Part shown: piece by piece, positions 5,881 to 53,698 of the stretch
Layout of the letters: every line of letters starts with the position of its first letter
How positions within the stretch are numbered: position 1 is the stretch's first letter
Assembly: GCA_026388185.1 (NCBI GenBank)
Contig: JAPLKG010000011.1
Location: forward strand, 248,001 to 312,000
Length of the DNA: 64,000 nucleotides
From: Candidatus Eisenbacteria bacterium
GTDB taxonomy: Bacteria > Eisenbacteria > RBG-16-71-46 > JAFGJU01
Reading direction: 5' to 3'
Notes under the pieces: generated by a model
The model's database searches: none
What the model was told of the DNA's origin: nothing
The model's input: only the letters and a program-made list of their open reading frames with translations
Made by a program: the position numbers and the translations under genes

Positions 5881-5932
5881 GGGATCTCCTTCGTCCTGTC
5901 CCGACGGTGGCTCAGGCACACCACCTCACCTA

Positions 5933-6546: not shown

Positions 6547-6900
6547 GATGTCTCCTCGATGCGCGAGCCGAGCCCGTGCTGGTGAAGATATGGCTCACCG
6601 GTAGGCGCTTGTCGTTTGATCCCGGCAAGTGTAGGCAATCCGCGCCGACTGTCAAGCGAAAGCGCCACGACGTACCGCGAGTCCCTCGCGGTCCTCACGT
6701 TCTGCCTCGGACCGCGGAGGGACGGCGCGGTTTGGTGACCGAGCGGATTTGTGCCGAATCAGCGAATCGGTTGTCGCGCGCGGTGCCGTCCGTAACACAG
6801 TTTGACACGACGCCGCCAACTGCTATACTAGGGAAACGGACTATTTCACGGCGAGACACCTACGAGCAACAGCTTGACGACAATAGCAGGAGGAAGTCAG
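6547..6900. other. Divergent intergenic region between pyrE and the second S8 protease gene
   Basis: 354 bases hold the rightward promoter at 6802-6829. I did not find a convincing leftward promoter for pyrE or any small gene with a ribosome binding site. Confidence 0.5.
6802..6829 (+). promoter_or_regulatory. Sigma-70-like promoter with extended -10
   Basis: TTGACA (6802-6807), 16-base spacer, TATACT (6824-6829) preceded by TGC, which is an extended -10 element. It lies about 72 bases before the ATG of the subtilase gene at 6901. Confidence 0.65.
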
Positions 6901-16800: not shown

Positions 16801-17387
16801 CGTTCATCACACTTGAAGATTTCTCCGGTTCGGTCGAGTGTCTAGTGTTCTCTGACCTCTACGAAAAGGCGAGGCGCGACATTTGCGTGGATTCGATCCT
16901 GATCGTGAAAGGGAGAACCAGCAGCAAGGAAGAGGAGATAAAGCTCATCGCTCAGGAAATTGAAGAGTTCAAGGACACTTCTGAGATCGTCGCGCCTTCG
17001 GAAGAGCTTGGGCGTGGGGGATGTCCGGCTGGGGGCCCGGGCGACGGTACTTCCTTGAAGGTGCTCGGAGAGGATGTTCCGGTTTCTCGGCAGAAACCGA
17101 GGCTGGAGATTCTGCTTCCTTCTTGCGGGATCGAGCTTGCCACGAGAGTCAAAGACGTTCTCCAGAGTTTTCCAGGTGAGTGCGAAGTCGTCCTCGTCGT
17201 GCAGGGCGACGAAAGAGCCCCTGTCAAGGTCAGAGTCCGCTCCGTGAGAGTCAGTGCGGACGACCTGCTCCTTCACGCGTTGGGGGAACTTATAGGCCCC
17301 GAAGGAGTTAAAATAGGGTGGCCGCAGAGAGAGATTTTGGATACTGCTGACACGGCGCAGTGGTCACCGCCAATCGGACAAAGGTAA
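13797..17387 (+). CDS. dnaE: DNA polymerase III subunit alpha
   Basis: The catalytic subunit of the replicative polymerase, 1196 residues, close to the usual ~1160. An N-terminal PHP domain is present with its metal-binding motifs intact (FVHLHNHTEYS, ITDHGNMFG). The polymerase active site shows PDIDVDFGYER near 401-411 and the palm sequence GPGRGSAAGSLVSYCL before it. The NKSHSTAYAIICYQTAYLK segment and a C-terminal OB fold (VVGVVSSSKM to SGSVECLVFSDLYE) follow. The start is GTG 13797, overlapping the M23 stop as GTGA. accA follows within a few bases, the same dnaE-accA adjacency as in Escherichia coli. Confidence 0.97.
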   Translation: MICLEHCKFVHLHNHTEYSLLDGACRIGDLVNAAKAYGMPALAITDHGNMFGAIEFYDKATRAGIKPLLGCEVYVARDRKEKNKDAGSRTHHLVLLAASNEGYRNLLSLVSAGYLEGFYYTPRVDREVLRKYSSGLVALSGCLSGEVARVAASGNLDAATAVAAEFREIFGEGNFYLELQNHGMEEELLVLPRLLEVSKRTGIRVVATNDCHYLKREDSEAHDVLLCIQTGKSVDDTDRLRFDTDQVYFKSPQEMMQVFADIPEACSTSIEIAEKCNVVLEFGKMYLPHFPLPDGCPSADHCLRTMAEQGLRERYHDITEDIVRRFEYEIDTICKMGFAEYLLVVRDFIEKAREMAIPVGPGRGSAAGSLVSYCLKITDIDPLKFGLLFERFLNPERISMPDIDVDFGYERRNEIIDYVLGKYGKENVTQIITFGTMAARAVVRDVGRALGVSYGEVDRLAKLIPNEPNMTLEKALGTVPELKELSTSDSTYEKLIRCASTLEGLARHASTHAAGVLIAPGKLTDYVPLFKSGENVVTTQYDMKSIERIGLLKMDFLGLRTLTVIEKTVEMVNRKGEARLSLESIPLDDEETFKLLRNAQTVGVFQVESSGMRDLLRRMKPSCIEDIIAVNALHRPGPIQGEMVKDFTLCKNGQKKITFEHPLLEPILKDTHGVILYQEQVLEIAHKLAGFSLGQADILRRAMGKKMAEEMDAQRRAFIGGAKKNGINRRTAERIFDLMANFAGYGFNKSHSTAYAIICYQTAYLKARYPQEFMAASLSSEMDRTERVTILVEECRRMGIKVLAPDICESQGEFTVTPLGIRFGLGAIRNVGSGAIRSIVQARESGGRFKSAFDVCRRVDLRLVNKRVLESLICAGSCDGLPGHRAQLLSALTKAYGTGQRKQREKVNGQVSFFDSRGHEFAGEELPEVSPWSRSIQLAREKEMLGFYFSDHPLAPFRDRVRRIASFEIAKLSELSDGTNVKVVGVVSSSKMIIGRNKRPMAFITLEDFSGSVECLVFSDLYEKARRDICVDSILIVKGRTSSKEEEIKLIAQEIEEFKDTSEIVAPSEELGRGGCPAGGPGDGTSLKVLGEDVPVSRQKPRLEILLPSCGIELATRVKDVLQSFPGECEVVLVVQGDERAPVKVRVRSVRVSADDLLLHALGELIGPEGVKIGWPQREILDTADTAQWSPPIGQR

Positions 17388-17395
17388 GTGGTTTG

Positions 17396-18361
17396 ATGGG
17401 CATAGACGGAACGTGGCTTGATTTTGAGAAGCCTATCGTAGAGTTGGAGCGACGAATACAGGACTTGAAGGACTTTGGAACCGAGGAGAACATCGAGTTT
17501 ACCGAGGAACTGGGGAGGCTGGAGCAACGCCTTACCAGACTGAAGAGCGAGATATACTCGGGTCTCTCCAGTTGGCAGAAAGTCCAGCTCGCAAGACACC
17601 CGCGCCGCCCGTACACGTTGGACTACGTCGAGGCCATGTGCTCGAGCTTCCAGGAGCTTCACGGGGACAGAAACTTCGGGGACGACAGGGCCGTGGTAGG
17701 CGGCCCGGCCGAGATCGCCGGAAGGCCCATCATGATCGTGGGGCAGCAGAAGGGGAGGAACACTAAGGAGAATATCAGCAGGAATTTCGGCATGCCTCAT
17801 CCGGAGGGCTATAGGAAGGCTCTCAGGCTCATGACGATGGCCGGCAAGTTCAGGTGTCCGATTCTGAGTCTCATAGACACCCCGGGAGCCTTTCCCGGAG
17901 TTGGTGCGGAAGAAAGGGGACAGTCGGAGGCAATCGCGCGTAACCTCAGGGAGATGGCTCTGATACCGGTGCCCATTGTCGTGGCAGTCATAGGTGAGGG
18001 AGGAAGTGGAGGTGCACTTGCCATGGCTGTGGGCGATACTGTGCTGATGATGGAGAACGCGATTTACTCAGTGATCTCACCCGAGGGTTGCGCCGCAATC
18101 CTCTGGAGCGACAGGGCGAAAGCTCCTCAGGCCGCTGAGGCGCTGCGGCTCACCGCGACGGATCTCTTCGAGATGAGCGTGGTTGACGAGCTCGTTCCGG
18201 AACCGCTTGGAGGTGCGCACAGGGATGCAGAGAAGTCGGCTGCCGCTCTTAAGGAGGCCGTGTTGCGCTGGTTGGATGATCTCTCAAAACTCTCCGTCGA
18301 CGAGCTACTGACCCGGCGAGCCTCAAAGTACCGGTCAATGGGAGTGTTCGAAAAAGAGTGA
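17396..18361 (+). CDS. accA: Acetyl-CoA carboxylase carboxyltransferase subunit alpha
   Basis: Forms, with AccD, the carboxyltransferase that moves the carboxyl group from biotin to acetyl-CoA, the first step of fatty-acid synthesis. ATG 17396 has AAGGTAAG about 7 nt upstream and gives 321 residues, matching the usual ~319; the frame also opens at GTG 17360. Family marks include WLDFEKPIVELE at the start, ARHPRRPYTLDY, FQELHGDRNFGDD, GMPHPEGYRKALRLM, IDTPGAFPGVGAEERGQ and IGEGGSGGALAM. accD is not in the window. The gene starts 8 bases after the dnaE stop. Confidence 0.96.
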   Translation: MGIDGTWLDFEKPIVELERRIQDLKDFGTEENIEFTEELGRLEQRLTRLKSEIYSGLSSWQKVQLARHPRRPYTLDYVEAMCSSFQELHGDRNFGDDRAVVGGPAEIAGRPIMIVGQQKGRNTKENISRNFGMPHPEGYRKALRLMTMAGKFRCPILSLIDTPGAFPGVGAEERGQSEAIARNLREMALIPVPIVVAVIGEGGSGGALAMAVGDTVLMMENAIYSVISPEGCAAILWSDRAKAPQAAEALRLTATDLFEMSVVDELVPEPLGGAHRDAEKSAAALKEAVLRWLDDLSKLSVDELLTRRASKYRSMGVFEKE

Positions 18362-18604: not shown

Positions 18605-21600
18605 ATGAAGAGGGGACGGCAGTCTATGCAGTTCAGGTTTTGTAGGGCGGCGAGACGTGATCCTCGGGCGACGGGCACACCGAGTTGCCTGAGTCTGATC
18701 GATGCTCTGGTGGCACTTTGTCTGTCTCTTGTGGTCTGCGCTGCGTTCATGGCGACCCCCTCTGAGAGTGAACCGCTGCCCGGTGGTCCGCCGGCCAGGC
18801 TCATCCGCTCGGACCAGACACTCATCGAGTTTGACGTAATTGCAGAGGGCACGAATTTCGTGACCAGGGAGACGGCGGCCGGAAGTTTCGAGGCCGTCAG
18901 AATTCCCGGTTTTTTCTCGTACGGCAGACCCGGTGAAGCACAACTCCCACACAGGACCTTTCTTGTCGGCATTCCTGTCGGAGCGGCATACGACGTCACA
19001 GTGCTACCTCTCGATGACGTGACTTTTCAGTCCAAGAGAATACTTCCTGCCCCGGTCGTTTCTGTCGGTGGCGACGGGATGAGCGAGGAACGAATCGTTC
19101 CCTCGGAGAGCTTTTACGGCAGAAACGAGTCACTTCCTCCCAGCCCGCTCCTGGGGGCGCGGGAATCATGGATGAGAAATCAGAGAGTCCTCGGGATCGA
19201 CGTCTCTCCTGCGAGGTATAACCCCGTCTCCCGGATCCTCGTGGTGTCGACAAGAGTCAAGGTCACCATCACGTTGCGACCCGGCGCAGTGAAATCAGGA
19301 GCCGGGCGCGAAGTGCAGAACATCGAGGCAGGTGAGGCGGACGGTCTCGAAGCCCTCTACCGGGCCACCCTCGTGAATTACGAGCCTTCCCGTGGCTGGA
19401 GAGGCAGGCGGGTTCCCAGACCGGTCAGTCAACTCCGCGACTCGTTTGCCTCGTCATCGAATTGGTGCAAACTGTCGGTCAAGGGACGCGGAATCTACAA
19501 GGTAACGGGCTCGGACCTCAGAACGGCCGGGGTGAGCGACCTGGGAAGCATAAACCCTCTCACGTTGAGACTCTTCAACGGAGGAGGCCTTCCGCTTCCA
19601 GCTGCGAGAGAACCTTCTTCGCTCGAGGAGTGGATGAGCGAGTGTGCCATCGAGGTTTTCGACGGAGGGGACGGTAGATTCGACGATACCGATTTCATCC
19701 TTTTCTACGGGATGGGGACTGACGGCTGGAAGGATTACTTCGAGCCCACCGAGCCCGCCGTGTATCTGGAGAACAGTTACACGGGCACGAACGTTTACTG
19801 GCTTACGTGGGACGGCAGCTTTGTCACGAATCCGGAGCCCGTACGGATCGCGTCAAGAAACGGCGTCCCCGTGACGGGCGGCGCGTACTTTCCCGGGTAC
19901 GTTCCCGCGAGGCTTCACGTAGAGAGGAACACGTTCTACGATCCTTCACTGGCGGAGAGAGACCAGCGCTGGGAGAAGTGGTGGTACCAGGCGCTTAGCA
20001 GCACCGCAAGCGGACCCCAGTCATATCTCTACACCTTCGAAGCTCCCAACCTCGAGCCTGCCGCCAGATGCAGCCTCATGGTAAGACTGTGGGCACCCTG
20101 CACAGTGACTGAAGTCTCCTGCGGCTACCGGCATAAGGGTAGAATCATATTGAACAGGCAGTGGGTGAATGAGGACTCGTTGTACAGTGTGAACTCCAGG
20201 ATGGATCTTTCCGGGAGCGGTTTCTGGGGTCAGGAAAGGGACTCCCTGATCATCACCCTGGGCTACGCGAGTGACGTGTTGTACCTCGCGTGGTATGAAT
20301 TTTTCTACGGCAAGAAACTGACTGTGGACAGCAACTCCTTCGCGCTCTCAAGCCCTGACACTACGGCCATTGTGAGGTATCCGCTCAACGGCGTGACCGA
20401 CACCACGGGCCTGAGGCTCTTCGACGTGACCGACTACTTCTCTCCAGTCGAAATAGTGGGGTGTGACCTGCAGGACGCCGGAGGCGACTTCACGCTGGAA
20501 TTCGAGGACACTCTCGAAGCAGGCAGAACAAAACACTATCTCCTGGTATCTTCAGCCGGCCTCAAGAGCCCCGAGAGTGTTGTCTTGAAACAGTTCAGCC
20601 GCCGCTTGAGGGACACCGAGAATGGCGCAGACTACGTCATGGTGACGCACCCGACTCTTGCGCAAGGAGTCCAGGGGCTCAGGTCATTACGAGAGACGAC
20701 AGTTCCTGGGATAGAGGATCCGGCGACCATGGTGGTCTTGACGTCGGAGATCTATGATGAATTTTCTTGGGGGCTTGAGGATGCGTGTGCACTCAGGGAT
20801 TTCATTATGTATGCTTACTGGAATTGGGCCGGAAGCTCAAGGCAGGTTTCTTACGTGTTTCTTGTCGGGGAAGCCTCGTACGATTTTCGCAATTACCTCG
20901 GCACCGGTTTCCAGAACCTGGTTCCCGCATGGGAAGATAGCTATGATTTTTACATGCAGGTTCAGCTCGTGAATGACGATTTCTTTGTTTTGCTCGACGG
21001 TCCCGGCGATGTGCTGACCGACGTCGTTGTTGGAAGAGCTACCGTCAGGACCCTCGGAGAGGCACGCACGGTTCTCGATCAGAAGACCGTGCCCTATGTC
21101 AACTCTCCAAGCCACGGGGTGTGGCGCAACAAGGCCATTATTGTCGCAGACGACAATTATAAACTCTGCGCGGCCGACGAGTTGGGGTACTGGCATACGT
21201 ATCTTAGCGACTCCGTTGCTGCGCTGCATCTGCCCAAGGCACTTGATAAAGACAAGATATATCTCGCCGAATTTCCGCGTGATGCCGGAGTTTGTTACAA
21301 ATCCAAGGCCAAGCAGGCGTTCATCTCGTCTTTTGACGAGGGAGCACTCATAGTCAATTACATTGGGCATGGAAGCGGGAACCAACTCGCCCATGAGCAG
21401 GTATTCCGTTTAGACGACGTAGGTTCGTTGTCCAACGGAGAGAAGCTACCCTTGTTTTTTGCAGGTTCATGCAAGGTCGCAAAGTTTGACGAGCCCTCCG
21501 GCAGCCAGGATGCAGAAGGAATTGCGGAAAAACTCCTGAGACAGGACGGGGGAGGGTCAATTGCGTCCGTCGCAGCGACAGGGCTTGTGTATAGCGATCA

Positions 21601-22792
21601 GAATTACGATTTCAACAGCGCGTTCTTCGATTTTGTTTTCCCCGGGGCATCGCTCGATTCGACGACGGCTATCGGTGTTGCTTTGCAGGCCGCCAAGAAC
21701 CTCCTGGCCGTTTCCAAGGAGGATACTCTGAACGCCAGAAAGTACTTACTCATGGGTGACCCGGCCCTCCAGCTCGCCGTTCCTGAGCTTGAGGTTGCCT
21801 TTGACACGACGAGTGCTGACACCGTGCATCTGGGAGAAGTTGTGACCGTGAGCGGGGAGATAAGGGACGACGGGGAGCTTGCGCAGTGGTACGACGCGAA
21901 TGTAGATCTGGAGGTTTCTGGCTCCGAAATTGTGCGTATTCCCGGTGGGTGGAGCCCTTACTATCTGCCCGGCTACAGATTCTTCCACGGCTCCGCGGCT
22001 GCGGAACAGGGAAGATTCGAGTTTTCCTTTGTCGTTCCTGTCGACACGTTGATACTGGGTTCTACGGGACGAGCCAGAGGTTATTCCGTGGGTACGGTCG
22101 ACGGTACAGGTATCGTCTCGCCCATGGTGATTGATCACACCGGCGCAACCCCCAGTGATACTACCGGCCCCTCGGTAGTGCTCAGATTCGACAACGATGC
22201 GCGCTACGTTCCGTCTCAGTCGGTGCTCCACGTAATCCTGCGTGATGAGCACGGCATTAGCATAACGGGCACGAACGCGTCGAATTCCATCCTTCTTCAG
22301 GTCGACAAGGCAATCGAGCCGGTCGACCTTACGTCTGCCTTTGTCTATTACGAAAGCAGCTACCAGGGGGGACAGATCGACTATGTGATTCCGACTCTTT
22401 CCACTGGACCTCACAGCGTCCTCGTGGTGGCGCACGACAACCTGGGCAACAGAGGCGCGGGAGATTTGGGATTTGAGATTGTGGAACGGGACACGCTTCT
22501 GCTGAAAGAGGTCATAAACTATCCGAATCCATTCAAGGAAGAAACGTACATAAACTTCGATCTGACCGCCGATGGAATGGCCACAATCAAGATCTTTACT
22601 GTGTCCGGTACGTTGATTCGCAAGCTTTGTGAGAATAGCCCTGCAAGGAGGGGAAACAATCAGTTCAAGTGGGACGGAAAGGATGCCGAAGGAGACGAAG
22701 TGGCCAACGGCATCTATCTTTACAAGATAGAAGTGAAGGACGGGGAGGGGGACAAGGATTCTTTTATCGGAAGGGCGGCGGTACTGAAATAG
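18605..22792 (+). CDS. porU: C25-family cysteine peptidase, PorU-like, with T9SS C-terminal domain
   Basis: A 1395-residue exported protein. It has a long N-terminal propeptide-like region and an Ig-like domain. A gingipain-type C25 domain follows, with catalytic His922 in YIGHGSGN and Cys956 in FFAGSCKV. The C-terminus (INYPNPFKEETYINFDL ... GIYLYKIEVKDG) is a type A sorting domain. In Bacteroidota PorU is the C25 sortase that removes the C-terminal signal from type IX cargo, and its gene is next to porV. The same adjacency here supports a PorU role, although an ordinary C25 protease cargo cannot be excluded. The signal peptide is LIDALVALCLSLVVCAAF; the start at ATG 18605 lacks a good ribosome binding site and ATG 18626 is an alternative. 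Confidence 0.75.
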   Translation: MKRGRQSMQFRFCRAARRDPRATGTPSCLSLIDALVALCLSLVVCAAFMATPSESEPLPGGPPARLIRSDQTLIEFDVIAEGTNFVTRETAAGSFEAVRIPGFFSYGRPGEAQLPHRTFLVGIPVGAAYDVTVLPLDDVTFQSKRILPAPVVSVGGDGMSEERIVPSESFYGRNESLPPSPLLGARESWMRNQRVLGIDVSPARYNPVSRILVVSTRVKVTITLRPGAVKSGAGREVQNIEAGEADGLEALYRATLVNYEPSRGWRGRRVPRPVSQLRDSFASSSNWCKLSVKGRGIYKVTGSDLRTAGVSDLGSINPLTLRLFNGGGLPLPAAREPSSLEEWMSECAIEVFDGGDGRFDDTDFILFYGMGTDGWKDYFEPTEPAVYLENSYTGTNVYWLTWDGSFVTNPEPVRIASRNGVPVTGGAYFPGYVPARLHVERNTFYDPSLAERDQRWEKWWYQALSSTASGPQSYLYTFEAPNLEPAARCSLMVRLWAPCTVTEVSCGYRHKGRIILNRQWVNEDSLYSVNSRMDLSGSGFWGQERDSLIITLGYASDVLYLAWYEFFYGKKLTVDSNSFALSSPDTTAIVRYPLNGVTDTTGLRLFDVTDYFSPVEIVGCDLQDAGGDFTLEFEDTLEAGRTKHYLLVSSAGLKSPESVVLKQFSRRLRDTENGADYVMVTHPTLAQGVQGLRSLRETTVPGIEDPATMVVLTSEIYDEFSWGLEDACALRDFIMYAYWNWAGSSRQVSYVFLVGEASYDFRNYLGTGFQNLVPAWEDSYDFYMQVQLVNDDFFVLLDGPGDVLTDVVVGRATVRTLGEARTVLDQKTVPYVNSPSHGVWRNKAIIVADDNYKLCAADELGYWHTYLSDSVAALHLPKALDKDKIYLAEFPRDAGVCYKSKAKQAFISSFDEGALIVNYIGHGSGNQLAHEQVFRLDDVGSLSNGEKLPLFFAGSCKVAKFDEPSGSQDAEGIAEKLLRQDGGGSIASVAATGLVYSDQNYDFNSAFFDFVFPGASLDSTTAIGVALQAAKNLLAVSKEDTLNARKYLLMGDPALQLAVPELEVAFDTTSADTVHLGEVVTVSGEIRDDGELAQWYDANVDLEVSGSEIVRIPGGWSPYYLPGYRFFHGSAAAEQGRFEFSFVVPVDTLILGSTGRARGYSVGTVDGTGIVSPMVIDHTGATPSDTTGPSVVLRFDNDARYVPSQSVLHVILRDEHGISITGTNASNSILLQVDKAIEPVDLTSAFVYYESSYQGGQIDYVIPTLSTGPHSVLVVAHDNLGNRGAGDLGFEIVERDTLLLKEVINYPNPFKEETYINFDLTADGMATIKIFTVSGTLIRKLCENSPARRGNNQFKWDGKDAEGDEVANGIYLYKIEVKDGEGDKDSFIGRAAVLK

Positions 22793-22849
22793 CAGCTTCA
22801 GCTTCCCGCCGGCGCGCCGGAGTTCCGGGACCTTTCGAGTGCGTTTTGA

Positions 22850-22879
22850 TTGACTTGAGTTGTAATCGCGTGTTAGACT
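22850..22879 (+). promoter_or_regulatory. Possible sigma-70 promoter before the PorV-like gene
   Basis: TTGACT (22850-22855), 18-base spacer, TAGACT (22874-22879), about 45 bases before ATG 22925. It would let the PorV-like gene be expressed apart from the C25 gene. Confidence 0.45.
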
Positions 22880-22924
22880 AAGAGGAAGTGTTTTGGTTTT
22901 GTAGTTCGAATGGGGGAAATTGGC

Positions 22925-23908
22925 ATGAAGAGATGCATTCCGTTTTATGCTGCCTTGATGTTTCTGCTTCTCTCGGGTCTATTGCCTTCCAGGGCGTTGG
23001 CTGTGGGTGAGGCCATTGCGCCATCTGTGACCTTTGCTCCGAGCGCTCGTTCGGAGGGAATGGGAAGGGCTTACGTTGCAATTGCCGACGACGCGACCGC
23101 CTCATGGTGGAATCCCGCCGGCCTCGCTTTTCTGACGAACAGGAACATTTCTGCAATGCATACCAAACTGGCCCCGGGCTTGGCAGACGACGTCTACTAT
23201 GAGTACTTGGGCTACGCCCAATCCACGAAGGATTGGGGCGGGCTTGCCGCAAGCCTTGTGTATCTGACTTACGGCGATATTCTGGGCACCGATGCCGAGG
23301 GGAACCCGACTGGGACTTTTACCAGCTATGAAATATCGCCCTCCCTGGCATACGGGACAATGCTGGCGAAGGATCTGGGCGTCGGCGTGAACCTCAAGAT
23401 TATTCACGTGAACTACGCTCCGTCGTGGGCCGTGATGGAAGGGAAGGCGGGGAAGGGTACGACCTTCGGCGCTGACCTCGGCGTTCTGTACAGGAGAAAC
23501 AGGTGGAGTCTGGGCGCATGCTTCCAGAACATCGGCCCCAATCTGACGCTGATCGACGCCGACCAATCAAGCCCGATCAGCAGAAACCTGAAGGTGGGCG
23601 TTGCCGCCAACGTGTGGGAGGGGAGTCTGGGCAGATGCATCGCGGCGTTCGACGTGAACAAGCCCTTTGTTTTTGCGGACGACGGGCCCATTGTCAGTGG
23701 CGGTGGGGAGTTCCTTTTCAGCGAACTTCTTGCAGTGAGATTAGGTTTCATCACCGAGAGATGGTACACGAAGGATTATCCTATTGAGGGACCGACGTTC
23801 GGACTGGGGCTACAGTACAAGGGTGTCAGGTTCGACTACGCGAGTGTTCCCCAGTCAAAGGAACTCGAAGACAAGGTGAGCAAGTTCTCTTTTTCTGCGA
23901 AGTTCTAA
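22925..23908 (+). CDS. porV: PorV/PorQ-family outer-membrane beta-barrel protein
   Basis: A 327-residue protein with a signal peptide (MKRCIPFYAALMFLLLSG, cleavage after ALA). The segment SEGMGRAYVAIADDATASWWNPAGL is the signature of the PorV/PorQ branch of FadL-like barrels. Alternating beta strands follow to the end (KFSFSAKF, terminal aromatic). PorV shuttles type IX substrates from the translocon to the PorU sortase in Bacteroidota. Being directly after the C25 gene is the expected porU-porV order. ATG 22925 is chosen because GGGGGA lies 7 nt upstream; ATG 22910 would leave the signal peptide with an unnatural extension. Confidence 0.82.
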   Translation: MKRCIPFYAALMFLLLSGLLPSRALAVGEAIAPSVTFAPSARSEGMGRAYVAIADDATASWWNPAGLAFLTNRNISAMHTKLAPGLADDVYYEYLGYAQSTKDWGGLAASLVYLTYGDILGTDAEGNPTGTFTSYEISPSLAYGTMLAKDLGVGVNLKIIHVNYAPSWAVMEGKAGKGTTFGADLGVLYRRNRWSLGACFQNIGPNLTLIDADQSSPISRNLKVGVAANVWEGSLGRCIAAFDVNKPFVFADDGPIVSGGGEFLFSELLAVRLGFITERWYTKDYPIEGPTFGLGLQYKGVRFDYASVPQSKELEDKVSKFSFSAKF

Positions 23909-23923: not shown

Positions 23924-26900
23924 TTGAGACCATTCCTCGCACTGCGCGCAAGCCTTGGGCTTGCGCTTTCCATTTTGGTCGGCTCTTTTTTCTGCGGTCA
24001 CTCGCAGGCGGCCCAATTGGGCTCTCGCTTGTTGAGGGTGACTCCCGTTCGCGAGGCTTCCTCGCGAGACAGGGTCGCTGCGGAGACTTCGAGAGGCGTT
24101 GTTGAACCTGGTAGAGATGTCATCAATGAAGTGCTGAAGAGGCGCGCCGTCAGGGACTACTTCGCGGCGCCGGGTCTTTCGGCGAGACAAGTGCCCGGCT
24201 TCCGCGCGGGATTGGGAACTCAGGGCACGGAAGCTCCACTGACCGTGCGCGTGCTCGGGCTCAGGGTAGACTTTCTCTCTGACAGAATGGGCTCTCTGAC
24301 TACTACCGCGGACGGCAAGTTCGATCTGAGGACCGGAACGGCGCAGTTCATTGATCCGCCTCCGCACAACGGCAATTACTTCGCTGCTCACTTGGAAGCT
24401 CTTTCGAGATACTATTCTGCAATGAGCTTCGCGGAGCTCCAGGTTGAGTACGATGTGTTCCCCCAAGAGCCTGACTCTGCGTTTCATCTCTCCGACACGG
24501 CCGACTACGGACCGTGGACGTACTCTGACGAAGACTACCAGCTCGGTGTTGCGCTCATAACTGACGCAGTGCATGCGGCGGACAATAGCGCAGAGTCCAT
24601 CGACTTCTCTCAATACGACATCGTCATAATCTTCCACGCGGGGGCCGATCTCCAGGGCGACGTGAACTACGACTCCGAGTGGGATCTCCCGTCTTTCTCG
24701 CTGACCCTCGCCGATCCTATACTCGTCGACCATGGGAGCGCCTACGTCTATGGGGCCGCGGTTATTCCGGAGACCTCGGGGCAGGACGGCATGCTAGGTG
24801 CGCTCAATGGTGTGCTTACCCACGAGTTCGGCCACATGCTCGGACTGCCTGATGTGTATAACACCGATGATTTCCTGCCTGCCGTCGGCTACTGGAGCCT
24901 GATGGACTCTGGAAACTATCTGGGGGGTATTGTGGAGGATCCGAACACCGGCGAACTCGTGTACGTGTTCGGGATCATTCCGGGTGGGCTTGATGCCTGG
25001 TCCAGGAGAGAGCTCGGAAGGATTGTTGGAAGACAGACGGTCGACGAAATAGAAGTCGGTGCGCAGTGGGCAGACACTCTGAGAGCGATTGAATTGAGTT
25101 CGCGCGTGCTGGTGGTGCCGGCAAGCGGCAGCGAGTATTTCATGATAGAGAATCGCGAGTGCGATCTTGACGGCAATGGCTACGTAGAGGTCAGAGCGGA
25201 CCCGGCAACGGGAGTGATCCTCGGTCCAGAGTCGAACGAGTATGATGCCCTCCTGCCAGGTTCTGGAATCCTAATATGGCACATCGATGAAGGGATCATC
25301 GCACGACGCAGCTCGCTCGGGCTGAGCCCGAACGGTGGCCAATCGGAAAGGGGAATAAGCCTGGAGGAAGCCGACGGGATTGTGGACCTGGGTGATCCTT
25401 CTTCTTCCTACTGGCTGGGCAGTGAGTTTGACCCATACTTCGTAAGCAATGCCACGCAGTTCGATCCAACAACGGTGCCCAACAGTGACGCCAATTCCGG
25501 TGCGGCGAGCCAGGGTTCCGTCAGCGTGGAGAGTGAAAGTCAGGTCGGCATGTACGTCTCCGTGGAGAGGAAGTGGGCGCGGGACGGCTGGCCGGTCGTT
25601 GTGGGACCACTTGAGGAAGCCTCTCCGGGTTTTGGGGATTTCGATGTGGACGGCGTGAAGGAAGTTTTTCTGGCAGGCCCCGGTTCCACCGTGAGGGCCT
25701 GGAAGGCCGACGGTTCGGCGTACCTTGCGGGAGAGCCGCGTGGAAGGCTGGCAGATGCGCCCGGCCCTCTTCTTCCCACTCTCTGTTTCAGTGAAGGCAT
25801 TTCTGCTCTTGTAGGCACCGTGGTGCTGGGAGATTCAGGTACCCTCTACGCTTGGGCCGTCAATGGTGACCACAGTCCGGTGACGCCGGGTCAGGTGTTG
25901 GCGGGCTGGCCGCCGGCCATTTCGTCTGTCACAACGCCTCCGTGTGCCGTGGGCGACGACATCATCGCCGGCTGCTCCGACGGAAAAGTGCGCGCTCTCG
26001 ACGCCGGAGGTGCCCTCAGATGGAGTAGTCAGACTTCGCTCGGCCAGTCTGTCACGGGCTCGATCGCGGCGGGTGACATTGACCATGACGGCTACTACGA
26101 AGTCGCTTTTGGCGGACCCCACTCGGTTGCGGTGGTTTCTTCGACGGACGGTGAGTTCTTGTTTTCGCCCTACGAATTGCCGGAGGGTGGCCCTGCTGAT
26201 TCGGCTGGACCCTACGTCTTGATGGCCGACGTGGACGGCAAACCTGACAGCACCTTGGAAGTTGTCATAACCACGGGTTCCGGGAACATGTTCGCTCTCA
26301 ACTCGACCGGGCAGGTTCTCGAAGGTTGGCCGGTTTTTCTCAACGATCCTGTCTCGTCGTGGCCTGCCGCAGGGGATGTCGACGGCGATGCCCTCGCGGA
26401 GATAGTCGTGCATTCGTCCTCCGGGAAGTTATACGTGATCAACGGGACCGGTGTGATCTCCTCGGGATGGCCCATAACGTCTGGCTGCTCCGGTACGCAA
26501 ACGCGCAACGGCGTCTCCGCTTGTGATTTGAACTCCGACAAATCGACCGAGATTCTCTTTCCCTACGATGGCTCCGGGATATCCGCCGTCGGCAGCGACG
26601 GGACGCCCCTACAAGACTGGCCCGTCGCGGTCGGCAGCCGGATTTGTGGTAGCCCCGCCCTGACGGATCTGGAGGAAGACGGGAAGCCGGAGCTATTTCA
26701 GGCCGCAGGCGACTCACTTCTTGTCTGCCTTGAACTGCCATATTCCGTCTCTGACTTCGAGTGGCCTCTCAGGGGCAACACGAGTGCCCGCACCAACTGC
26801 CTTGAGCGGCGCGGAGGCCTGTCGCTGCTTGCTGGACAGGTGCTGTTCGCGGGAGGTGCAGTCTACCCTCAACCGAACCCTTCTCACGGGCCGACAACGA

Positions 26901-27121
26901 GCATCAGGTACTTTCTCTCAGCGCCGGCAAGCGTGAAACTCGAGATATTCGACCTTTCGGGGAGGAGAGTCTACTCCAGCGAGACCGAATGCCAGGCCAC
27001 CGAAAACTCGTTCGTCTGGTCTCACGCGGGTCTTCCTCCCGGAGTCTACATAATCAGGTTGGAAGCGGAGGCCCTTGGAAGGAAAGACGTGGCATTCACG
27101 AAGGCATCTGTGTTACACTAA
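23924..27121 (+). CDS. M6-family metalloprotease with beta-propeller and T9SS C-terminal signal
   Basis: A 1065-residue secreted zinc protease of the immune-inhibitor-A-like M6 family. The metal site HEFGHMLGLPD (H300, E301, H304, D310) matches HExxHxxGxxD and is followed by GYWSLMDSGNYLGG. A propeller of SGWP/DVDGD-type blades spans about 545-950. The C-terminus (YPQPNPSHGPTTSIRYFL ... PGVYIIRLEAEALG) is a type IX sorting domain. TTG 23924 has AGGGA 7 nt upstream and opens a signal peptide (ALRASLGLALSILVGSFF). It starts 15 bases after the PorV-like gene, so it is probably co-transcribed with it and is a likely cargo of that system. Confidence 0.88.
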   Translation: MRPFLALRASLGLALSILVGSFFCGHSQAAQLGSRLLRVTPVREASSRDRVAAETSRGVVEPGRDVINEVLKRRAVRDYFAAPGLSARQVPGFRAGLGTQGTEAPLTVRVLGLRVDFLSDRMGSLTTTADGKFDLRTGTAQFIDPPPHNGNYFAAHLEALSRYYSAMSFAELQVEYDVFPQEPDSAFHLSDTADYGPWTYSDEDYQLGVALITDAVHAADNSAESIDFSQYDIVIIFHAGADLQGDVNYDSEWDLPSFSLTLADPILVDHGSAYVYGAAVIPETSGQDGMLGALNGVLTHEFGHMLGLPDVYNTDDFLPAVGYWSLMDSGNYLGGIVEDPNTGELVYVFGIIPGGLDAWSRRELGRIVGRQTVDEIEVGAQWADTLRAIELSSRVLVVPASGSEYFMIENRECDLDGNGYVEVRADPATGVILGPESNEYDALLPGSGILIWHIDEGIIARRSSLGLSPNGGQSERGISLEEADGIVDLGDPSSSYWLGSEFDPYFVSNATQFDPTTVPNSDANSGAASQGSVSVESESQVGMYVSVERKWARDGWPVVVGPLEEASPGFGDFDVDGVKEVFLAGPGSTVRAWKADGSAYLAGEPRGRLADAPGPLLPTLCFSEGISALVGTVVLGDSGTLYAWAVNGDHSPVTPGQVLAGWPPAISSVTTPPCAVGDDIIAGCSDGKVRALDAGGALRWSSQTSLGQSVTGSIAAGDIDHDGYYEVAFGGPHSVAVVSSTDGEFLFSPYELPEGGPADSAGPYVLMADVDGKPDSTLEVVITTGSGNMFALNSTGQVLEGWPVFLNDPVSSWPAAGDVDGDALAEIVVHSSSGKLYVINGTGVISSGWPITSGCSGTQTRNGVSACDLNSDKSTEILFPYDGSGISAVGSDGTPLQDWPVAVGSRICGSPALTDLEEDGKPELFQAAGDSLLVCLELPYSVSDFEWPLRGNTSARTNCLERRGGLSLLAGQVLFAGGAVYPQPNPSHGPTTSIRYFLSAPASVKLEIFDLSGRRVYSSETECQATENSFVWSHAGLPPGVYIIRLEAEALGRKDVAFTKASVLH

Positions 27122-27194
27122 GTTACACTAGAAGGGAACTACCCGGCCGCCCGGTGGTACACAATAGGTGGGATGGCCCTCTGGGAGGATGTGT

Positions 27195-28001
27195 ATGGCT
27201 CGGTATTTGGGCCTGATGCTCTCGTGTATCTTGTTCAGTTGCTTGTTGATTTCGGCCTGCGGAAACGCTTGCGCCCAGGCAGCCCTCGAAGTGAAGGGGA
27301 ATCTTGCCCTGGCAGACCCGCTAATCGGACCTCTCGATTCTGAGCCGGCCTTACTTCTTGCCCAGAAAGCAATCGAAGAACCCGTCACAGCGACTGAGAA
27401 GACCGGCGAACTGGGGTCTTCACGACAGGTCGAGAAATCCCCTGCAAAGGCGTTTCTTTTCTCTGGAATGGTTCCAGGAAGTGGCGAGCTTTACGTGGGG
27501 GCAAAGAGGGGATACATATTCCTGGGAGTTGAGGCGGTGGCCTGGGCTTCGAGCTACTTCTTGCGCGAGAGCGGCAACAAGAAAGAGGAGGAATTCGAGG
27601 ACTTTGCCGACCGACACTGGGCTTTTCCGGCCATCGGCTCGGAGTACAATGGCTCGGTCTACACTGCTCAGCGCGACAGCCTGATGCAGTATTTCTACGT
27701 GCACAACAAGCAGCATTACTACGAAGACATCGGAAAGCAGCCGTTCTGCATGCCCGGTTGGGATTCCACGGTGAACCTGGAGTCTTACCTCGACATGAGG
27801 GACAATAGCAACTGGCTTCTCAAGAATTCGAATTACGCAATGATGGCTGCCGTGGTAAACCACGTGGTCAGTGCCGTTGACGCTTTGAGACTCGCCCGGA
27901 ATTACAACGCCAGCCTCGGTCACGGAATGAAGCTGAATCTAAAGCTTAAGACCAATCCGCATTCAATGGGAATCATCATGGTTGCCTCTCGGAAATTCTG
28001 A
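27195..28001 (+). CDS. DUF5683-like envelope protein, first of a pair
   Basis: A 268-residue exported protein. ATG 27195 follows GGGAGG with 6 nt spacing; the frame is open further upstream but has no site there. The signal peptide MARYLGLMLSCILFSCLLISAC could end in a lipobox (ISAC) or be cut later at AQA. The core KAFLFSGMVPGSGELYVGAKRGYIFLGVEAVAW resembles DUF5683, where a PGxGxxY motif precedes paired hydrophobic segments. The function of DUF5683 is not established. The related gene at 28065 has the same organisation and the same terminal pattern, suggesting a tandem duplication. Confidence 0.65.
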   Translation: MARYLGLMLSCILFSCLLISACGNACAQAALEVKGNLALADPLIGPLDSEPALLLAQKAIEEPVTATEKTGELGSSRQVEKSPAKAFLFSGMVPGSGELYVGAKRGYIFLGVEAVAWASSYFLRESGNKKEEEFEDFADRHWAFPAIGSEYNGSVYTAQRDSLMQYFYVHNKQHYYEDIGKQPFCMPGWDSTVNLESYLDMRDNSNWLLKNSNYAMMAAVVNHVVSAVDALRLARNYNASLGHGMKLNLKLKTNPHSMGIIMVASRKF

Positions 28002-28064: not shown

Positions 28065-28898
28065 GTGAAGCATTCTAAGCTCGTGCCTCTGGTTTTCTTG
28101 ACGTTCGTTCTTGCCGCTGTTCTTCCTCCCGTGGCACGTGCCGGCGCAATCTCGCCTTCGCCTGCGATGGCCCTGGTGACAAAGGATTTCCGCGAGTCTC
28201 TTCAGGTTGCGGATGCTTCGTCTGACGTCTCTTCGACTTCGGATGCTTCGTCCTCCCTGTCAAAGAATGGAGGGAAATCGAGGGCCAAGGCACTCGCTCT
28301 ATCGACCCTGCTGCCTGGGGCCGGGCAGTACTACAGCGGGAGGAAGGGAAGGGCCAAGTTCTTTTTTCTGACTGAATCCGCGATATGGACCAGCTTTATC
28401 GTTTTTGAAGTGCAGGGTCATCTTAGAAAGGACAACTACATAAATTACGCCGGACTGATGGCGGGTGTCGACGCTGCGGGCAAGTCGGAAGATTTCTATC
28501 GCGCCCTCGGCCGGTACGTGCAAAGCGATCCTGGACCTGGAAGCTATAATGAGGACGTACGGAGGGAGGCAAGAGCGCTTTATCCAGACGACAAGCAGCA
28601 ACAGGATCAGTACGTTCAGGAGAACGGCTATTTTGGCAAGAACGCCTGGCAGTGGCAGTCAGAAGAGGACCAGGCTTACTACAGAAACCTCAGGAAGAAG
28701 AGTCAACTGGCTTTTCGCCGGGCCACGTATATGGTGGGTGTGGCCGTCGCCAATCGAATTCTGTCGGCCATGGATGCGGCCCGTTCCGTCGCAAATCCGG
28801 CAAAGCCGGCGAATACATCTCAAGGGCTCAGGTTTGAGATGCGAACAGACCCGGATTCTCCCGAGTACTTCATGGTCTGCTTGACACGATCCTTCTGA
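28065..28898 (+). CDS. DUF5683-like envelope protein, second of a pair
   Basis: A 277-residue exported protein with signal peptide LVPLVFLTFVLAAVLPPVARA. The core KALALSTLLPGAGQYYSGRKGRAKFFFLTES matches the DUF5683 pattern more closely than its upstream neighbour. A serine/aspartate-rich linker (SSDVSSTSDASSSL) precedes the core. Both proteins share a late segment (VNHVVSAVDALRLARN versus ANRILSAMDAARSVAN) and end with an aromatic beta strand. The start is GTG 28065 with GAGGG about 9 nt upstream. The role is unknown; the location inside the type IX-like block suggests an envelope function. Confidence 0.65.
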   Translation: MKHSKLVPLVFLTFVLAAVLPPVARAGAISPSPAMALVTKDFRESLQVADASSDVSSTSDASSSLSKNGGKSRAKALALSTLLPGAGQYYSGRKGRAKFFFLTESAIWTSFIVFEVQGHLRKDNYINYAGLMAGVDAAGKSEDFYRALGRYVQSDPGPGSYNEDVRREARALYPDDKQQQDQYVQENGYFGKNAWQWQSEEDQAYYRNLRKKSQLAFRRATYMVGVAVANRILSAMDAARSVANPAKPANTSQGLRFEMRTDPDSPEYFMVCLTRSF

Positions 28899-28972: not shown

Positions 28973-29923
28973 GTGAAGAGACCGACTGTCGTCCTGCTTT
29001 GTGCTCTGCTTACTCTCTCTTGTGCGAGCGAGATGCAGCGTTCGCTGCCCGTTGCGTCCACCCCGGGACGCCCACCGGACGTCAGGCACGCATTCTCGTT
29101 TGGGTCCAGTGGCCAGTCACTCGGCCAGTTCAGAACGCCGTCGTCCATTGCAGTCGATTCCTTCGGCAATCTCCTGGTCGCTGACACTGGCAACAACAGA
29201 ATACAGAAGTTCGACGCATACGGACACTTTCTCCTGGAATTCGGGGGACTCGGCACGGAGGGGGCGGAACTCAATCGCCCTACCGACGCCGTCGAGAACT
29301 CTCTGTCCGTCTACGTTGTCGATTCCATGAACGAAAGGGTCCTCGAGTATGGCCCCGAGGGACGCTTCATATCGGTGTGTGTTTCGGGCGAGACGCTGGA
29401 CGGGTCTGGTAGAGGTTTTGGGCCCAGAAAGTTGGCCTTCTCAGAATCTGGATACGGTTTTCTGACCGACGTGGAAGCCGACGCCGTCATCGTCCTCTCG
29501 AAGTTCTGGGAGCCCATTTCTGTGATCGGTGGTTTTGGCAGCGGCGAAGGACATTTTGCGGACCCTCTCGGCATTACTTGCACGCGGGGGGGAGAAGTTC
29601 TTGTGTGCGACAGCGGAAATGGAAGGCTACAGATTCTAGACACTCTCGGTAATTTCGTGGCACTGCTCGAAACCTGCTCCGGCAGGGCGTTGTGTGAGCC
29701 AGTCGACGTGGACGCTGGGCCTGATGGAAGTCTCTACGTCGTGGATCGGCTCGGGAAAAGGGTGTTGGTTTTCAACTCTGACAGGACGTTCAGGTGCGAA
29801 ATACCAGGCTCAGATGGGCCCTCGTTGGTCTCTCCGTGTGCGGTGGCTGCTTCGTCGAAAGGAATCGTCTACATAGTAGACGGCGGCGCTGATGTCGTAC
29901 ATGCCTTCGAGACTAAGAGATAG
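28973..29923 (+). CDS. Lipoprotein with NHL-repeat beta-propeller
   Basis: A 316-residue protein with lipobox LTLSC near residue 17, so a predicted lipoprotein. Repeats of the NHL type are clear: TPSSIAVDSFGNLLVADTGNN, then RPTDAVENSLSVYVVDSMNE, DPLGITCTRGGEVLVCDSGNG and EPVDVDAGPDGSLYVVDRLG. These make a six-bladed propeller, usually a scaffold for protein or peptidoglycan binding. The start is GTG 28973 with a weak ribosome binding site. Its end overlaps the possible start of the large barrel gene that follows, which suggests translational coupling. Confidence 0.82.
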   Translation: MKRPTVVLLCALLTLSCASEMQRSLPVASTPGRPPDVRHAFSFGSSGQSLGQFRTPSSIAVDSFGNLLVADTGNNRIQKFDAYGHFLLEFGGLGTEGAELNRPTDAVENSLSVYVVDSMNERVLEYGPEGRFISVCVSGETLDGSGRGFGPRKLAFSESGYGFLTDVEADAVIVLSKFWEPISVIGGFGSGEGHFADPLGITCTRGGEVLVCDSGNGRLQILDTLGNFVALLETCSGRALCEPVDVDAGPDGSLYVVDRLGKRVLVFNSDRTFRCEIPGSDGPSLVSPCAVAASSKGIVYIVDGGADVVHAFETKR

Positions 29924-32900
29924 CTTCCGGCCACATGTACTGCCTGAAGCGGCGAACGAGCGTTCGAAGAGGGGAGAGGTACGAATTCTGCCCTTCCTGT
30001 CCGTTCTCGTTCTCTTGGCCGTGCTCGTCGTGCGGCCCGTGCGTTGTCTTTCAGAGGACGCAGTTTCGTCTCTGCCCTGCGCAGAGCCTGACAGCGTCTC
30101 GTGCGACAGCTCGTCCGCGGCCTCGTCGCTTGTTTCGTGCTCCACTCCTGACGCGTCCAGCAGAATCGCTGTCTACAGATTTCCGTCGCAGGTCCGGCGC
30201 CTCAAGCTCCCGGACACAAACATCTTTGTTGGGAGCGAGCGAGTCAGCGTCGACGGAAGATCTCTCTCGAGGAACTCCTACTTTCTGGACTGCGGAAAAG
30301 GTGAGCTCTTTCTGAGCGAGCCCGTGCCTCCCGTTGCAGAGATAAGAGTCGAGTACCGATACCTTCCCATCTACTTGAAGGGATCTTACTGCTTGCGTCT
30401 GCCCGGCGCCGTTGCCCGTTTGGGTGAAGAAGGGGCGACTTCTCTTGCGACGGCTGCCGGGGAAGGGAACCCCATCCAGAGAGAGCTGAGGGAGGAAGGA
30501 ACAAGGAGTGCTTCAAGCGGGCTCAGGTTGAGAGGGACAAAGACGCTTTCGCTGGAGGTCGGCTCCAACCGCGATGCCACGCTGAGGCAGTCACTTGATA
30601 TGAACGTGACAGGCGAGATTTCGAAGGGGCTAAGCCTGACGGCCGTTCTCACGGACAGGGACCTTCCGATACAAGCCGAAGGGAGAACGGAGGCACTAAA
30701 CGAACTTGATGAGATCAGAGTCGAATTGCAGTCTCAGGAATTCAAGGCGGCACTCGGAGACTGCAATTTCGTTTTGGACGGGGCCTCCCTGGTAAACGTC
30801 TCTCGGAAACTCGAGGGCGCGCAGGCCAGAGGGACAGTCAAGGGATTGGACGTCGTGCTGGCCGGGAGCACGCTGAAGGGCAAATGGGTGACAAGAGATT
30901 TCCTGGGAATGGAGGGGAGGCAGGGCGCGTATCAGTTGACGACGGACGCCGGCGCTTCGTGTGTTGTGATTGCAGGCACGGAGAAGGTATGGCTTGACGG
31001 CGTCAGTCTAAGAAGGGGAGAGAGTGCCGACTATTGGATTGACTACGGCTCAGGGAAACTCTACTTCACAAATCGCAGACCTATCACCGGGTACTCCAGA
31101 ATATCGGTGGAATACGAATACGCAACCGGCGACTACGAGAAGAATTTCTACGCTGCCGGAGCGGGCACCAATCTCAGCGGCGGGTTGGGAAGAGTGGAGT
31201 TCTTGGTCGTTTCCGAAGGAGATCAGAAGGCGTTGGAGGCGGGTTCCTTGACTGATGAGGAAGAGAGGATGCTGAAAGAGTTGGGAGATGCTCCGTCAAA
31301 CGGAACCGTCGAAGGCGCAATCTACGTGGGCGGCGGGAATGGGGACTACGAGCTGATCTCAGATGACTCGACCGGCACCGAATTCTTCAGGTTCGTGTCC
31401 GAAGGCGGCGGTTCTTACCTGGTCAGTTTCATCGACGTGGGCGAGAACAACGGATCCTACTTCGCGACGGCGGACACGACCGGCAAGGTTTATTACGCCT
31501 ACGCGGGCCTCGGCAACGCCGGGTACCGTCCTGGTAGACGGCTCGTTGCACCCACTTCCAAGAAGGTCGAGGACATGAGGGCCGACGTTTCAGTGGGAGG
31601 CTTTGATCTCAAGGGCGAGTTTGCGCTGAGCCAAACCGATCTCAACACTTTTTCCTCGATCGGTGACGACGACAATCTCGGCAAGGCGGGGACGATCTCG
31701 CTCAAGAGCGGAGCGAGGGGGATTTCGCTCGGCAGTTTGTCCCTGGGTCGCGTGAGTTTTGAGGGGAACTTCAGATCGATCGACGAGGAGTTTCGTACGT
31801 TCGGCAGCATCAACTCACCTTTCGAATACGAGAACTGGGCGCTTGCCGACAGTTCGCTCTTGAACCACGGAGAGAAAAGACTCGAGGCCAGGACCAACTA
31901 CAGTCCGTGGCAAACCGTCACGCTGGCCTTTCAGCACGGCGAGCTCTCCTCGACTTCGGGAATCGACGCGAGTAGAAACGTCTACTCGTTCGAGCGCGCC
32001 GGAAAGTTCTCGGTCTCGGGGCGGATTGAGAAGGCAGCCAGCAACGCAGTGGGTTCGAGCGAAGTCGGCTCCAGCAGAACCGTAAAATCACTGGGTTCGC
32101 GCGTCGGTGGCTGGAACGTCGTTCCTTCCATCAGCTACTATTCGGAAGTCAAAGAAAACGATGACGGGACAGGAGTGATGGCAGAAGAGGTCGGAGGCGG
32201 ACTCTCCTCTGCGTGGAGAGCTCCGCTGTCCGTGAAGATCGAGGAGAGATACAGGATAGAGTATCTGGGCACCAGGGCGAACCGCACGAGAAGCTACGAT
32301 GCCATCACGCATTCACTGGGAATGGAGATAAACAGGTGGAGATCGGTGAGCGCCTCGTGTGAGTACTCGGTTCGCGACCTGAACGGCTACAACGGTCTCG
32401 AAAGCGTGCGAACAGAGCTTGGGAAGCTCTTCGTTTCGCAGAGCACGCCCTCCGGCAAGTTGAGCTACGAGATCAACCATCTTGTCACGACTCTGAATAT
32501 GCAGTCCAGGACGAAGAACATCGTCTATGTCGGCCAGAACGGGGGAAGCTACGACAGCACGGGTACCTTCAGGGGGAGAGGCGACTACGACGTTGAGATA
32601 ATCGACCTTGCTTCTTCGGCGCTGAGCGCGGACGCCACAACGAGCGCCACTCTTGCGCTGAAGCCGTTTCGAGGAATGGAGAAAAACTCCCCCTTGAAAG
32701 GAATCTTGGAGGGCCTTTCGTCCTCCAGCCTCTTCAGATCTTCCGGGACGCTTCGAGGCGCGCCCGGGCCTTTCTCTCTGCTAGTCAGTCCCATGTACAC
32801 CGAGTCCCCGGACGCAATCAGAAGCGACGGACTCATCCGTGAAGAGCTGGAGATGACGTCTTTCTCGAAGAAGGTGGCGTTGAGGTACCGCTACGAGCTG

Positions 32901-46062: not shown

Positions 46063-46100
46063 TTGCATGAGACCTTCGACGGAAGGTTGATGGCGCGTGA

Positions 46101-46130
46101 CCCTCACCCTGTCGTTGGTGAGGGTTTTTT
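46101..46130 (+). terminator. Riboswitch expression-platform terminator
   Basis: An 8-bp stem CCCTCACC / GGTGAGGG (46101-46108, 46117-46124) with an 8-base loop and six Ts. It stands 38 bases after the aptamer and before the first gene, so control is probably by transcription termination when cobalamin is plentiful. Confidence 0.85.
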
Positions 46131-46158
46131 GGTTTTTGGTGTTTCGAGGAGCACAAAC

Positions 46159-46743: not shown

Positions 46744-46760
46744 GATTGAAGGAGGAGAAC

Positions 46761-49439: not shown

Positions 49440-49603
49440 GGTGGTTGCATTTTGCAGACCCCTCATGCAAAAAGCCATCCTCTCGGCACGTGCACCCGCA
49501 CAGAATTTTCACTAGAATCGCGACAACTGCTCTAACCGGCACACTCGCCGAGAGTTGAAGATTGCCCCCGTGCCGTGCCTGCACTGCCCCTTTTTGCCCG
49601 GTT

Positions 49604-49617
49604 GGCACCAATCCTGC
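49604..49617 (+). promoter_or_regulatory. Sigma-54 promoter before pilB
   Basis: TTGGCACCAATCCTGCTT has GG at 49604-49605 and GC at 49616-49617 with exactly 10 bases between, the -24/-12 spacing of sigma-54 promoters. It is 54 bases before the pilB start. PilR, encoded downstream, is a sigma-54 activator. Confidence 0.65.
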
Positions 49618-49670
49618 TTGAGTCACGCTCTACGTGGACTGCGATTTTCCGCTGGGAAAGGAGTTACGGT

Positions 49671-51362: not shown

Positions 51363-51368
51363 GAATAC

Positions 51369-52445: not shown

Positions 52446-52460
52446 AAAGGACTGAGAAAC

Positions 52461-53669: not shown

Positions 53670-53698
53670 TTGCTGACTGGCTTGAGTCTGGAGGTAAC

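What the first reader, a model, noticed from the sequence alone, without database searches (positions are those of the whole stretch)
18605..23908. PorU-PorV-like pair suggests a type IX secretion system
A C25 protein with intact Cys/His and its own sorting domain is directly followed by a PorV/PorQ barrel, the order known from Bacteroidota. The window does not look like Bacteroidota, so this may be a divergent T9SS.
Basis: partly seen in the sequence, partly recalled or inferred. Interest (0 to 1): 0.6.

Follow-up and report, generated by a model that had tools for sequence, protein, structure and literature searches.

The report
T9SS-type secretion genes without known motor

Summary
Window 18605-22792 encodes a full-length PorU (582 bits, cut-off 420) with catalytic His922/Cys956 and its own sorting tail; 22910-23908 encodes a PorV-family barrel. 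The host is Candidatus Eisenbacteria. The genome has a strong SprA/Sov translocon (553 bits, cut-off 200) and about 43 places with a type IX sorting tail, so a type IX-like system is present. SprA is matched in 38 and PorU in all 39 genomes of the class searched. GldL, GldM and GldN gave no hit over cut-off in these 39; GldK, M and N were also absent from the other non-Bacteroidota FCB genomes tested, while the models scored strongly in two Bacteroidota controls. It matches T9SS in its outer-membrane half only; how it is energised is unknown. PorU-PorV open an eight-gene outer-membrane cluster (M6 protease, two DUF5683-like proteins, NHL lipoprotein, 1189-residue SprA-related barrel, Omp85) conserved in Eisenbacteria, Latescibacterota and Krumholzibacteriota. 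The barrel family occurs in 25 of 26 FCB genomes and matched no Pfam or NCBIfam family above cut-off. This PorU also carries a gingipain-type prodomain missing from the four Bacteroidota-side PorU examined. New variant of a known kind.

The parts
18605..22792 (+). PorU, C25 sortase/CTD peptidase, 1395 aa
   Evidence: NF033707 582 bits over 283-1390; PDB 6za2 1.3e-45; present in 39/39 class genomes
18815..19354 (+). Gingipain-type N-terminal prodomain of PorU (residues 71-250), not found on four Bacteroidota-side PorU
   Evidence: Pfam Propeptide_C25 5.8e-20; distribution
20633..21775 (+). C25 catalytic domain (residues 677-1057); His922 and Cys956 intact
   Evidence: PF01364 5.3e-74; invariant in alignment A1
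22520..22744 (+). Type A sorting tail of PorU
   Evidence: TIGR04183 29.7 bits, cut-off 23
22910..23908 (+). PorV-family outer-membrane barrel (carrier), 332 aa
   Evidence: NF033709 197 bits, cut-off 90; PDB 6h3i_F 1.5e-10
23924..27121 (+). M6 metalloprotease with intact HEFGH, beta-propeller repeats and type A sorting tail; homologue of the inactivated T9SS M6i protein
   Evidence: NF052323 262 bits (below cut-off 600), TIGR04183 32 bits; FG-GAP 8e-15; HExxH check
27168..28001 (+). Exported DUF5683-like protein X1, ends in Phe
   Evidence: weak DUF5683 match; syntenic in the class and in other phyla
28065..28898 (+). Exported DUF5683/DUF6677-like protein X2, ends in Phe
   Evidence: weak Pfam matches; synteny
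28973..29923 (+). NHL beta-propeller with lipobox-like LSC signal, putative lipoprotein
   Evidence: PF01436 7e-22; N-terminus read directly; synteny
29892..33461 (+). 1189-aa outer-membrane barrel, distant SprA relative, family without a Pfam or NCBIfam match over cut-off; 25/26 FCB genomes
   Evidence: no family over cut-off; profile match to SprA; genome search
33500..35326 (+). POTRA-Omp85 protein (BamA-like, below the BamA cut-off)
   Evidence: PF07244 4.6e-22; TIGR03303 90.6 bits, cut-off 297; synteny
17360..18361 (+). accA, conserved upstream neighbour of porU, not thought to be part of the system
   Evidence: TIGR00513 474 bits; same neighbour in Latescibacterota, Krumholzibacteriota and others

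Best explanation
The window holds the sortase/carrier locus of a type IX-like secretion system of Candidatus Eisenbacteria. Inferred mechanism: exported proteins with a type A C-terminal tail pass SprA in the outer membrane, are pulled out of its side gate by the PorV-family barrel, and are delivered to PorU, which cuts the tail and anchors or releases the protein. PorU is probably made as a zymogen kept inactive by its own gingipain-type prodomain, unlike the Bacteroidota-side PorU examined, which lack that domain. Energy is not supplied by a recognisable PorL/M motor and PorK/N ring. Either another ion-driven complex (TolQR/ExbBD type) or a motor too diverged to detect does this. The downstream genes most likely encode outer-membrane partners of the same pathway, among them a second, smaller SprA-like barrel and an Omp85 that may help build these large barrels. 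Shown: gene identities, cargo tails, synteny, motor absence at profile level. Inferred: every step of the mechanism.
For: PorU equivalog score and catalytic pair. PorV family. SprA 1964 aa, 553 bits, PDB SprA match 7e-135. About 43 sorting-tail places over cut-off. SprA-model match in 38/39 and PorU in 39/39 class genomes. GldL/M/N absent over cut-off in 39/39; GldK/M/N absent over cut-off in the non-Bacteroidota genomes tested but strong in two Bacteroidota controls. Cluster conserved across phyla. Prodomain. Barrel related to SprA and present in 25/26 genomes.
Against: No experiment. SprA lies at another locus next to nusA/infB. The PorV ORF misses the specific PorV cut-off. TIGR04183 overlaps FlgD-Ig-like domains and also scored in three control genomes, over the cut-off in one, so some cargo calls may be wrong. 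Profile searches cannot exclude a diverged PorLMKN. PorT, PorW/SprE, PorE, PorZ and PorQ were not searched for in the genome.
Confidence: 0.72

Rival explanations
1. A complete canonical T9SS: PorK, L, M and N are present but too diverged for the Bacteroidota-trained profiles.
For: SprA, PorU, PorV and cargo tails are all present, and in F. johnsoniae removing the GldLM motor leaves substrates trapped on the translocon (PMC10994853). The GldL model gave a few sub-cut-off matches in the class.
Against: SprA is still found at hundreds of bits in the same genomes. GldM and GldN gave nothing at E <= 0.01 in the non-Bacteroidota genomes, and no gene cluster like porP-gldKLMN was met next to the porU, barrel or own-genome sprA loci of the non-Bacteroidota examined.
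Confidence: 0.25
2. The C25 protein is a secreted gingipain-type protease and the barrel beside it is an unrelated FadL-like porin; there is no secretion system here.
For: The PorU has a gingipain-type prodomain. C25 tree support is moderate and the AU test does not reject grouping with other C25 proteins (p 0.068).
Against: Full-length PorU match far over the cut-off while the genome's other C25 proteins are below it. PorU-PorV order is conserved from Chitinophaga to Eisenbacteria. SprA and cargo tails are present.
Confidence: 0.03
3. PorU, PorV and SprA are a T9SS-like system, but the genes behind them (X1, X2, NHL, barrel, Omp85) form a separate outer-membrane biogenesis module that merely shares the operon.
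For: Omp85 and NHL lipoprotein suggest barrel or lipoprotein assembly. In Ignavibacteria, Cloacimonadota and WOR-3 the barrel family sits away from porU.
Against: The eight genes stay together across at least three phyla. The barrel is a distant SprA relative. In one Bacteroidetes genome the barrel lies directly upstream of porP-gldKLMN.
Confidence: 0.35

Closest known systems
Type IX secretion system of Bacteroidota (P. gingivalis, F. johnsoniae)
   Same: SprA/Sov translocon, PorV-family carrier, PorU sortase with its own tail, type A sorting tails on many exported proteins, porU-porV gene order
   Different: No PorL/M motor or PorK/N ring by profile search; PorU has a gingipain-type prodomain; porU heads a cluster not seen around porU in the Bacteroidota examined
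PorU of P. gingivalis (PDB 6za2)
   Same: C25 domain, His/Cys pair, C-terminal sorting domain, alignment over residues 708-1385
   Different: Extra N-terminal part of about 280 residues with Propeptide_C25
NF052323 T9SS-dependent M6-like inactivated metalloprotease
   Same: Homologous M6 protein with sorting tail directly after PorU-PorV
   Different: Active-site HExxH intact here, lost in the Ignavibacteria/Chlorobi and HBSIN02 homologues; 262 bits, cut-off 600
SprA/Sov (TIGR04189)
   Same: The 1189-residue barrel at 29892-33461 shares three segments with SprA (hhalign 97.5, 94.9, 85.9%)
   Different: About 60% of the length; only 15 bits with the SprA model; a separate full SprA exists in the genome

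Membership tests
PorU (NF033707) | Full-length match over the curated cut-off | tested here: met
   582 vs 420 bits
PorU (NF033707) | Catalytic His and Cys of C25 | tested here: met
   His922, Cys956
PorU (NF033707) | Own C-terminal sorting domain | tested here: met
   TIGR04183 24.0 and 29.7 bits, cut-off 23
PorU (NF033707) | Separates from gingipain-type C25 in a tree | tested here: inconclusive
   One side of a branch, support 63/92; AU p 0.068 for the alternative
PorU (NF033707) | Cleaves tails / transpeptidase activity | not testable with these tools
   needs biochemistry
PorV/PorQ family (NF033709) | Score over the family cut-off | tested here: met
   197 vs 90 bits
PorV sensu stricto (NF033710) | Score over the equivalog cut-off | tested here: not met
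   116.8 vs 250 bits
Type IX secretion system | SprA/Sov translocon | tested here: met
   553 bits, cut-off 200; PDB 6h3i/6h3j
Type IX secretion system | Cargo with C-terminal sorting tail | tested here: met
   about 43 places over cut-off
Type IX secretion system | PorL/GldL and PorM/GldM motor | tested here: not met
   No match over cut-off in 39 class genomes; GldM positive in two Bacteroidota controls
Type IX secretion system | PorK/GldK and PorN/GldN ring | tested here: not met
   PorN none in 39 class genomes with working controls; PorK none in own genome, only sub-cut-off matches in other non-Bacteroidota
Type IX secretion system | PorT, PorW/SprE, PorE, PorZ, PorQ | not tested
SprA family (for the 1189-aa barrel) | Score over the TIGR04189 cut-off | tested here: not met
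   15 vs 200 bits; distant relation only
T9SS-dependent M6i protein (NF052323) | Equivalog score and inactivated site | tested here: not met
   262 vs 600 bits; HEFGH intact

The most novel reading that the evidence does not exclude
Outside Bacteroidota the FCB superphylum runs an ancestral type IX secretion without the PorKLMN motor-ring, powered by another energy source, and its outer-membrane complex includes a so far unnamed, nearly superphylum-wide SprA-like barrel family plus the other proteins of this conserved cluster; the Gld motor would then be a later addition in Bacteroidota.
Probability: 0.4. Interest if true: 0.8.

Novelty: new variant of a known kind. Interest (0 to 1): 0.6.

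Why it matters
In F. johnsoniae the GldLM motor is what extracts cargo from SprA; without it substrates stay trapped on the translocon (PMC10994853). Genomes that keep SprA, PorU, PorV and dozens of cargo tails but show no such motor make the question of what energises SprA directly testable, and suggest that the motor shared with gliding motility was added to an older secretion pathway. The conserved cluster offers candidates for missing components: the barrel family matched no Pfam or NCBIfam family over cut-off even in Bacteroidota members and in one Bacteroidetes genome lies next to porP-gldKLMN. The PorU prodomain hints that PorU and gingipains share a zymogen ancestor.

Tried and rejected
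(2) Searching named genomes with the single PorU protein found nothing, and the diverse PorU alignment had no stretch conserved enough; the SprA alignment worked and gave the named organisms. (3) Folding the 1189-aa barrel without an alignment gave pLDDT 30, unusable; no fold search was done. (4) PDB search with the barrel profile gave nothing meaningful. (5) Gingipain-type protease: rejected. (6) First pass of PorU extraction read only the + strand and mis-sampled loci; redone. (7) Literature: Abby 2016 restricted T9SS to Bacteroidetes (PMC4793230). [quoted passage not shown] A 2025 paper calls SprA an FCB-specific T9SS channel (PMC12611786). The sorting domain was already reported in Melioribacter and Kryptonia. 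So presence outside Bacteroidota is not new; no paper met in the held library described the missing motor or this cluster, but that library is partial and my searches were few.

Full report
Observation. The first, 18605-22792, is a full-length PorU: NF033707, 582 bits against a cut-off of 420, residues 283-1390 matching model positions 3-1091. It carries the C25 domain, a gingipain-type propeptide (Pfam Propeptide_C25, 5.8e-20) and a C-terminal sorting domain. Its catalytic His922 and Cys956 are invariant among 12 class members and lie at the positions of those of the crystallised P. gingivalis PorU, 6za2. The second, 22910-23908, is a PorV/PorQ-family barrel (197 bits, cut-off 90). It does not reach the cut-off of PorV proper, and its best PDB relative is the PorV of the SprA complex.

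Organism. The window is part of a 2.62 Mb genome, 97.9% complete. With the SprA alignment as query, the closest named genomes are Candidatus Eisenbacteria (61-63% SprA identity). GC is about 55-60%.

Is there a type IX system? SprA: one 1964-residue protein at another locus, 553 bits, and its profile finds F. johnsoniae SprA structures at 7e-135; 38 of 39 class genomes have a SprA-model match (a few of these are only fragments or the weak barrel match). Cargo: about 43 places in the own genome have the type A sorting tail over the cut-off, among them PorU itself, the neighbouring M6 protease and a subtilase at window 3397-5919; TIGR04183 overlaps FlgD-Ig-like domains and scored in control genomes, so some of these may be false. 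PorU: all 39 class genomes match, 28 over cut-off. The genome's other three larger C25 proteins stay below the PorU cut-off (277, 105 and 80 bits), so the window protein is the PorU. A C25 tree puts the PorU rows on one side of a branch, but with support of only 63/92.

Motor and ring. GldL, GldM and GldN gave no match over cut-off in 39 genomes of the class. To check that the models work, GldM, GldN and GldK were searched in named genomes: they score 327-389, 153-200 and 518-579 bits in Chitinophaga eiseniae and a second Bacteroidetes genome. None of the non-Bacteroidota genomes (Ignavibacteria/Chlorobi, Marinimicrobia, Cloacimonadota, Zixibacteria, Latescibacterota, WOR-3, Krumholzibacteriota, Hydrothermota, Eisenbacteria), nor HBSIN02 (titled Bacteroidia), reached a cut-off; GldK gives only generic partial matches there. 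GldL had no separate genome control, but its model recognises the control gene at 170 bits. The same non-Bacteroidota genomes have PorU (21 of the 23 genomes searched over cut-off). So the outer-membrane half and the motor half of the system have different distributions. Profile searches cannot exclude a strongly diverged motor.

The cluster. In the window, eight consecutive same-strand genes follow accA: PorU, PorV, an M6 metalloprotease with propeller repeats and sorting tail, two DUF5683-like proteins, an NHL protein with a lipobox-like signal, a 1189-residue barrel, and a POTRA-Omp85 protein. Five of the eight end in phenylalanine as outer-membrane barrels do. Profiles built from the Eisenbacteria members find the same order in the other Eisenbacteria families, in two Latescibacterota (without the M6 gene), two Krumholzibacteriota and three unclassified genomes, in part in Zixibacteria, and as PorU-PorV-M6 in Ignavibacteria/Chlorobi; Chitinophaga, Cloacimonadota and WOR-3 keep PorU-PorV. 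The M6 protein keeps HExxH here and in Krumholzibacteriota and Zixibacteria but has lost it in Ignavibacteria/Chlorobi, where NCBIfam's inactivated M6-like family probably belongs (inference from the names and the motif).

The barrel. The 1189-residue protein matched no Pfam or NCBIfam family over cut-off, neither here nor in Bacteroidota homologues. Its profile matches SprA in three segments (97.5, 94.9 and 85.9% probability; with smaller alignments). It is found in 25 of 26 FCB genomes (matches in a few are partial), missing only in Chitinophaga; in one Bacteroidetes genome it lies directly upstream of porP-gldK-gldL-gldM-gldN. I read it as an outer-membrane paralogue of SprA; whether it takes part in secretion is not shown.

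PorU prodomain. Propeptide_C25 is on PorU of Eisenbacteria, Chlorobi/Ignavibacteria, Cloacimonadota and Hydrothermota, and a profile made from such rows (some of which trained it) adds WOR-3 and Stahlbacteria; four Bacteroidota-side PorU and Marinimicrobia have none. The zymogen idea is inference.

Mechanism and verdict. The most likely working is that of T9SS: SprA pore, PorV-family carrier, PorU as tail peptidase/sortase. Because a defining part (motor and ring) was tested and not found, I do not file it as a canonical T9SS but as a T9SS-type system without a recognised motor. That type IX components and tails occur outside Bacteroidota has been stated before; the missing motor, the conserved eight-gene cluster, the barrel family and the PorU prodomain I did not find described in the papers I could search.

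Noticed in passing
L226:4695-14523 (Bacteroidetes bacterium CTSoil_032): The homologue of the window's 1189-aa barrel lies directly upstream of porP, gldK, gldL, gldM and gldN in a Bacteroidetes genome.
   Followed up: partly
window 17360-18361: accA is the upstream neighbour of porU not only here but in Latescibacterota, Krumholzibacteriota and three unclassified genomes.
   Followed up: no
window 3397-5919 (-) and 6874-10320 (+): Two S8 subtilases; the first has a sorting tail over the cut-off, the second one just below it (19.6 bits), with FG-GAP propeller repeats.
   Followed up: no
G000:C8:234505-238836 (L002, L131): A second C25 protein of the genome, open frame of about 1700 aa, gingipain-like with a sorting tail: probable cargo protease.
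   Followed up: partly
G000:C17:243318-244553 (L003, L130): A PorU-like C25 protein of about 1350 aa, 277 bits with the PorU model, with similar proteins in several FCB genomes; perhaps a second sortase.
   Followed up: partly
L189, L190, L188: The M6 protein behind PorU-PorV has lost its HExxH motif in Ignavibacteria/Chlorobi and HBSIN02 while most Eisenbacteria, Krumholzibacteriota and Zixibacteria keep it.
   Followed up: yes
window 49575-56835: Type IV pilus-type ATPases and inner-membrane protein followed by a PilS-like kinase and a sigma-54 activator.
   Followed up: no
window 46063-48845: ECF-type substrate-binding membrane component next to a TonB-dependent receptor.
   Followed up: no
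G041 (Cytophagaceae MAG): Has SprA and a strong PorU (1119 bits) but no GldM hit; may be MAG incompleteness or loss of the motor inside Bacteroidota.
   Followed up: no
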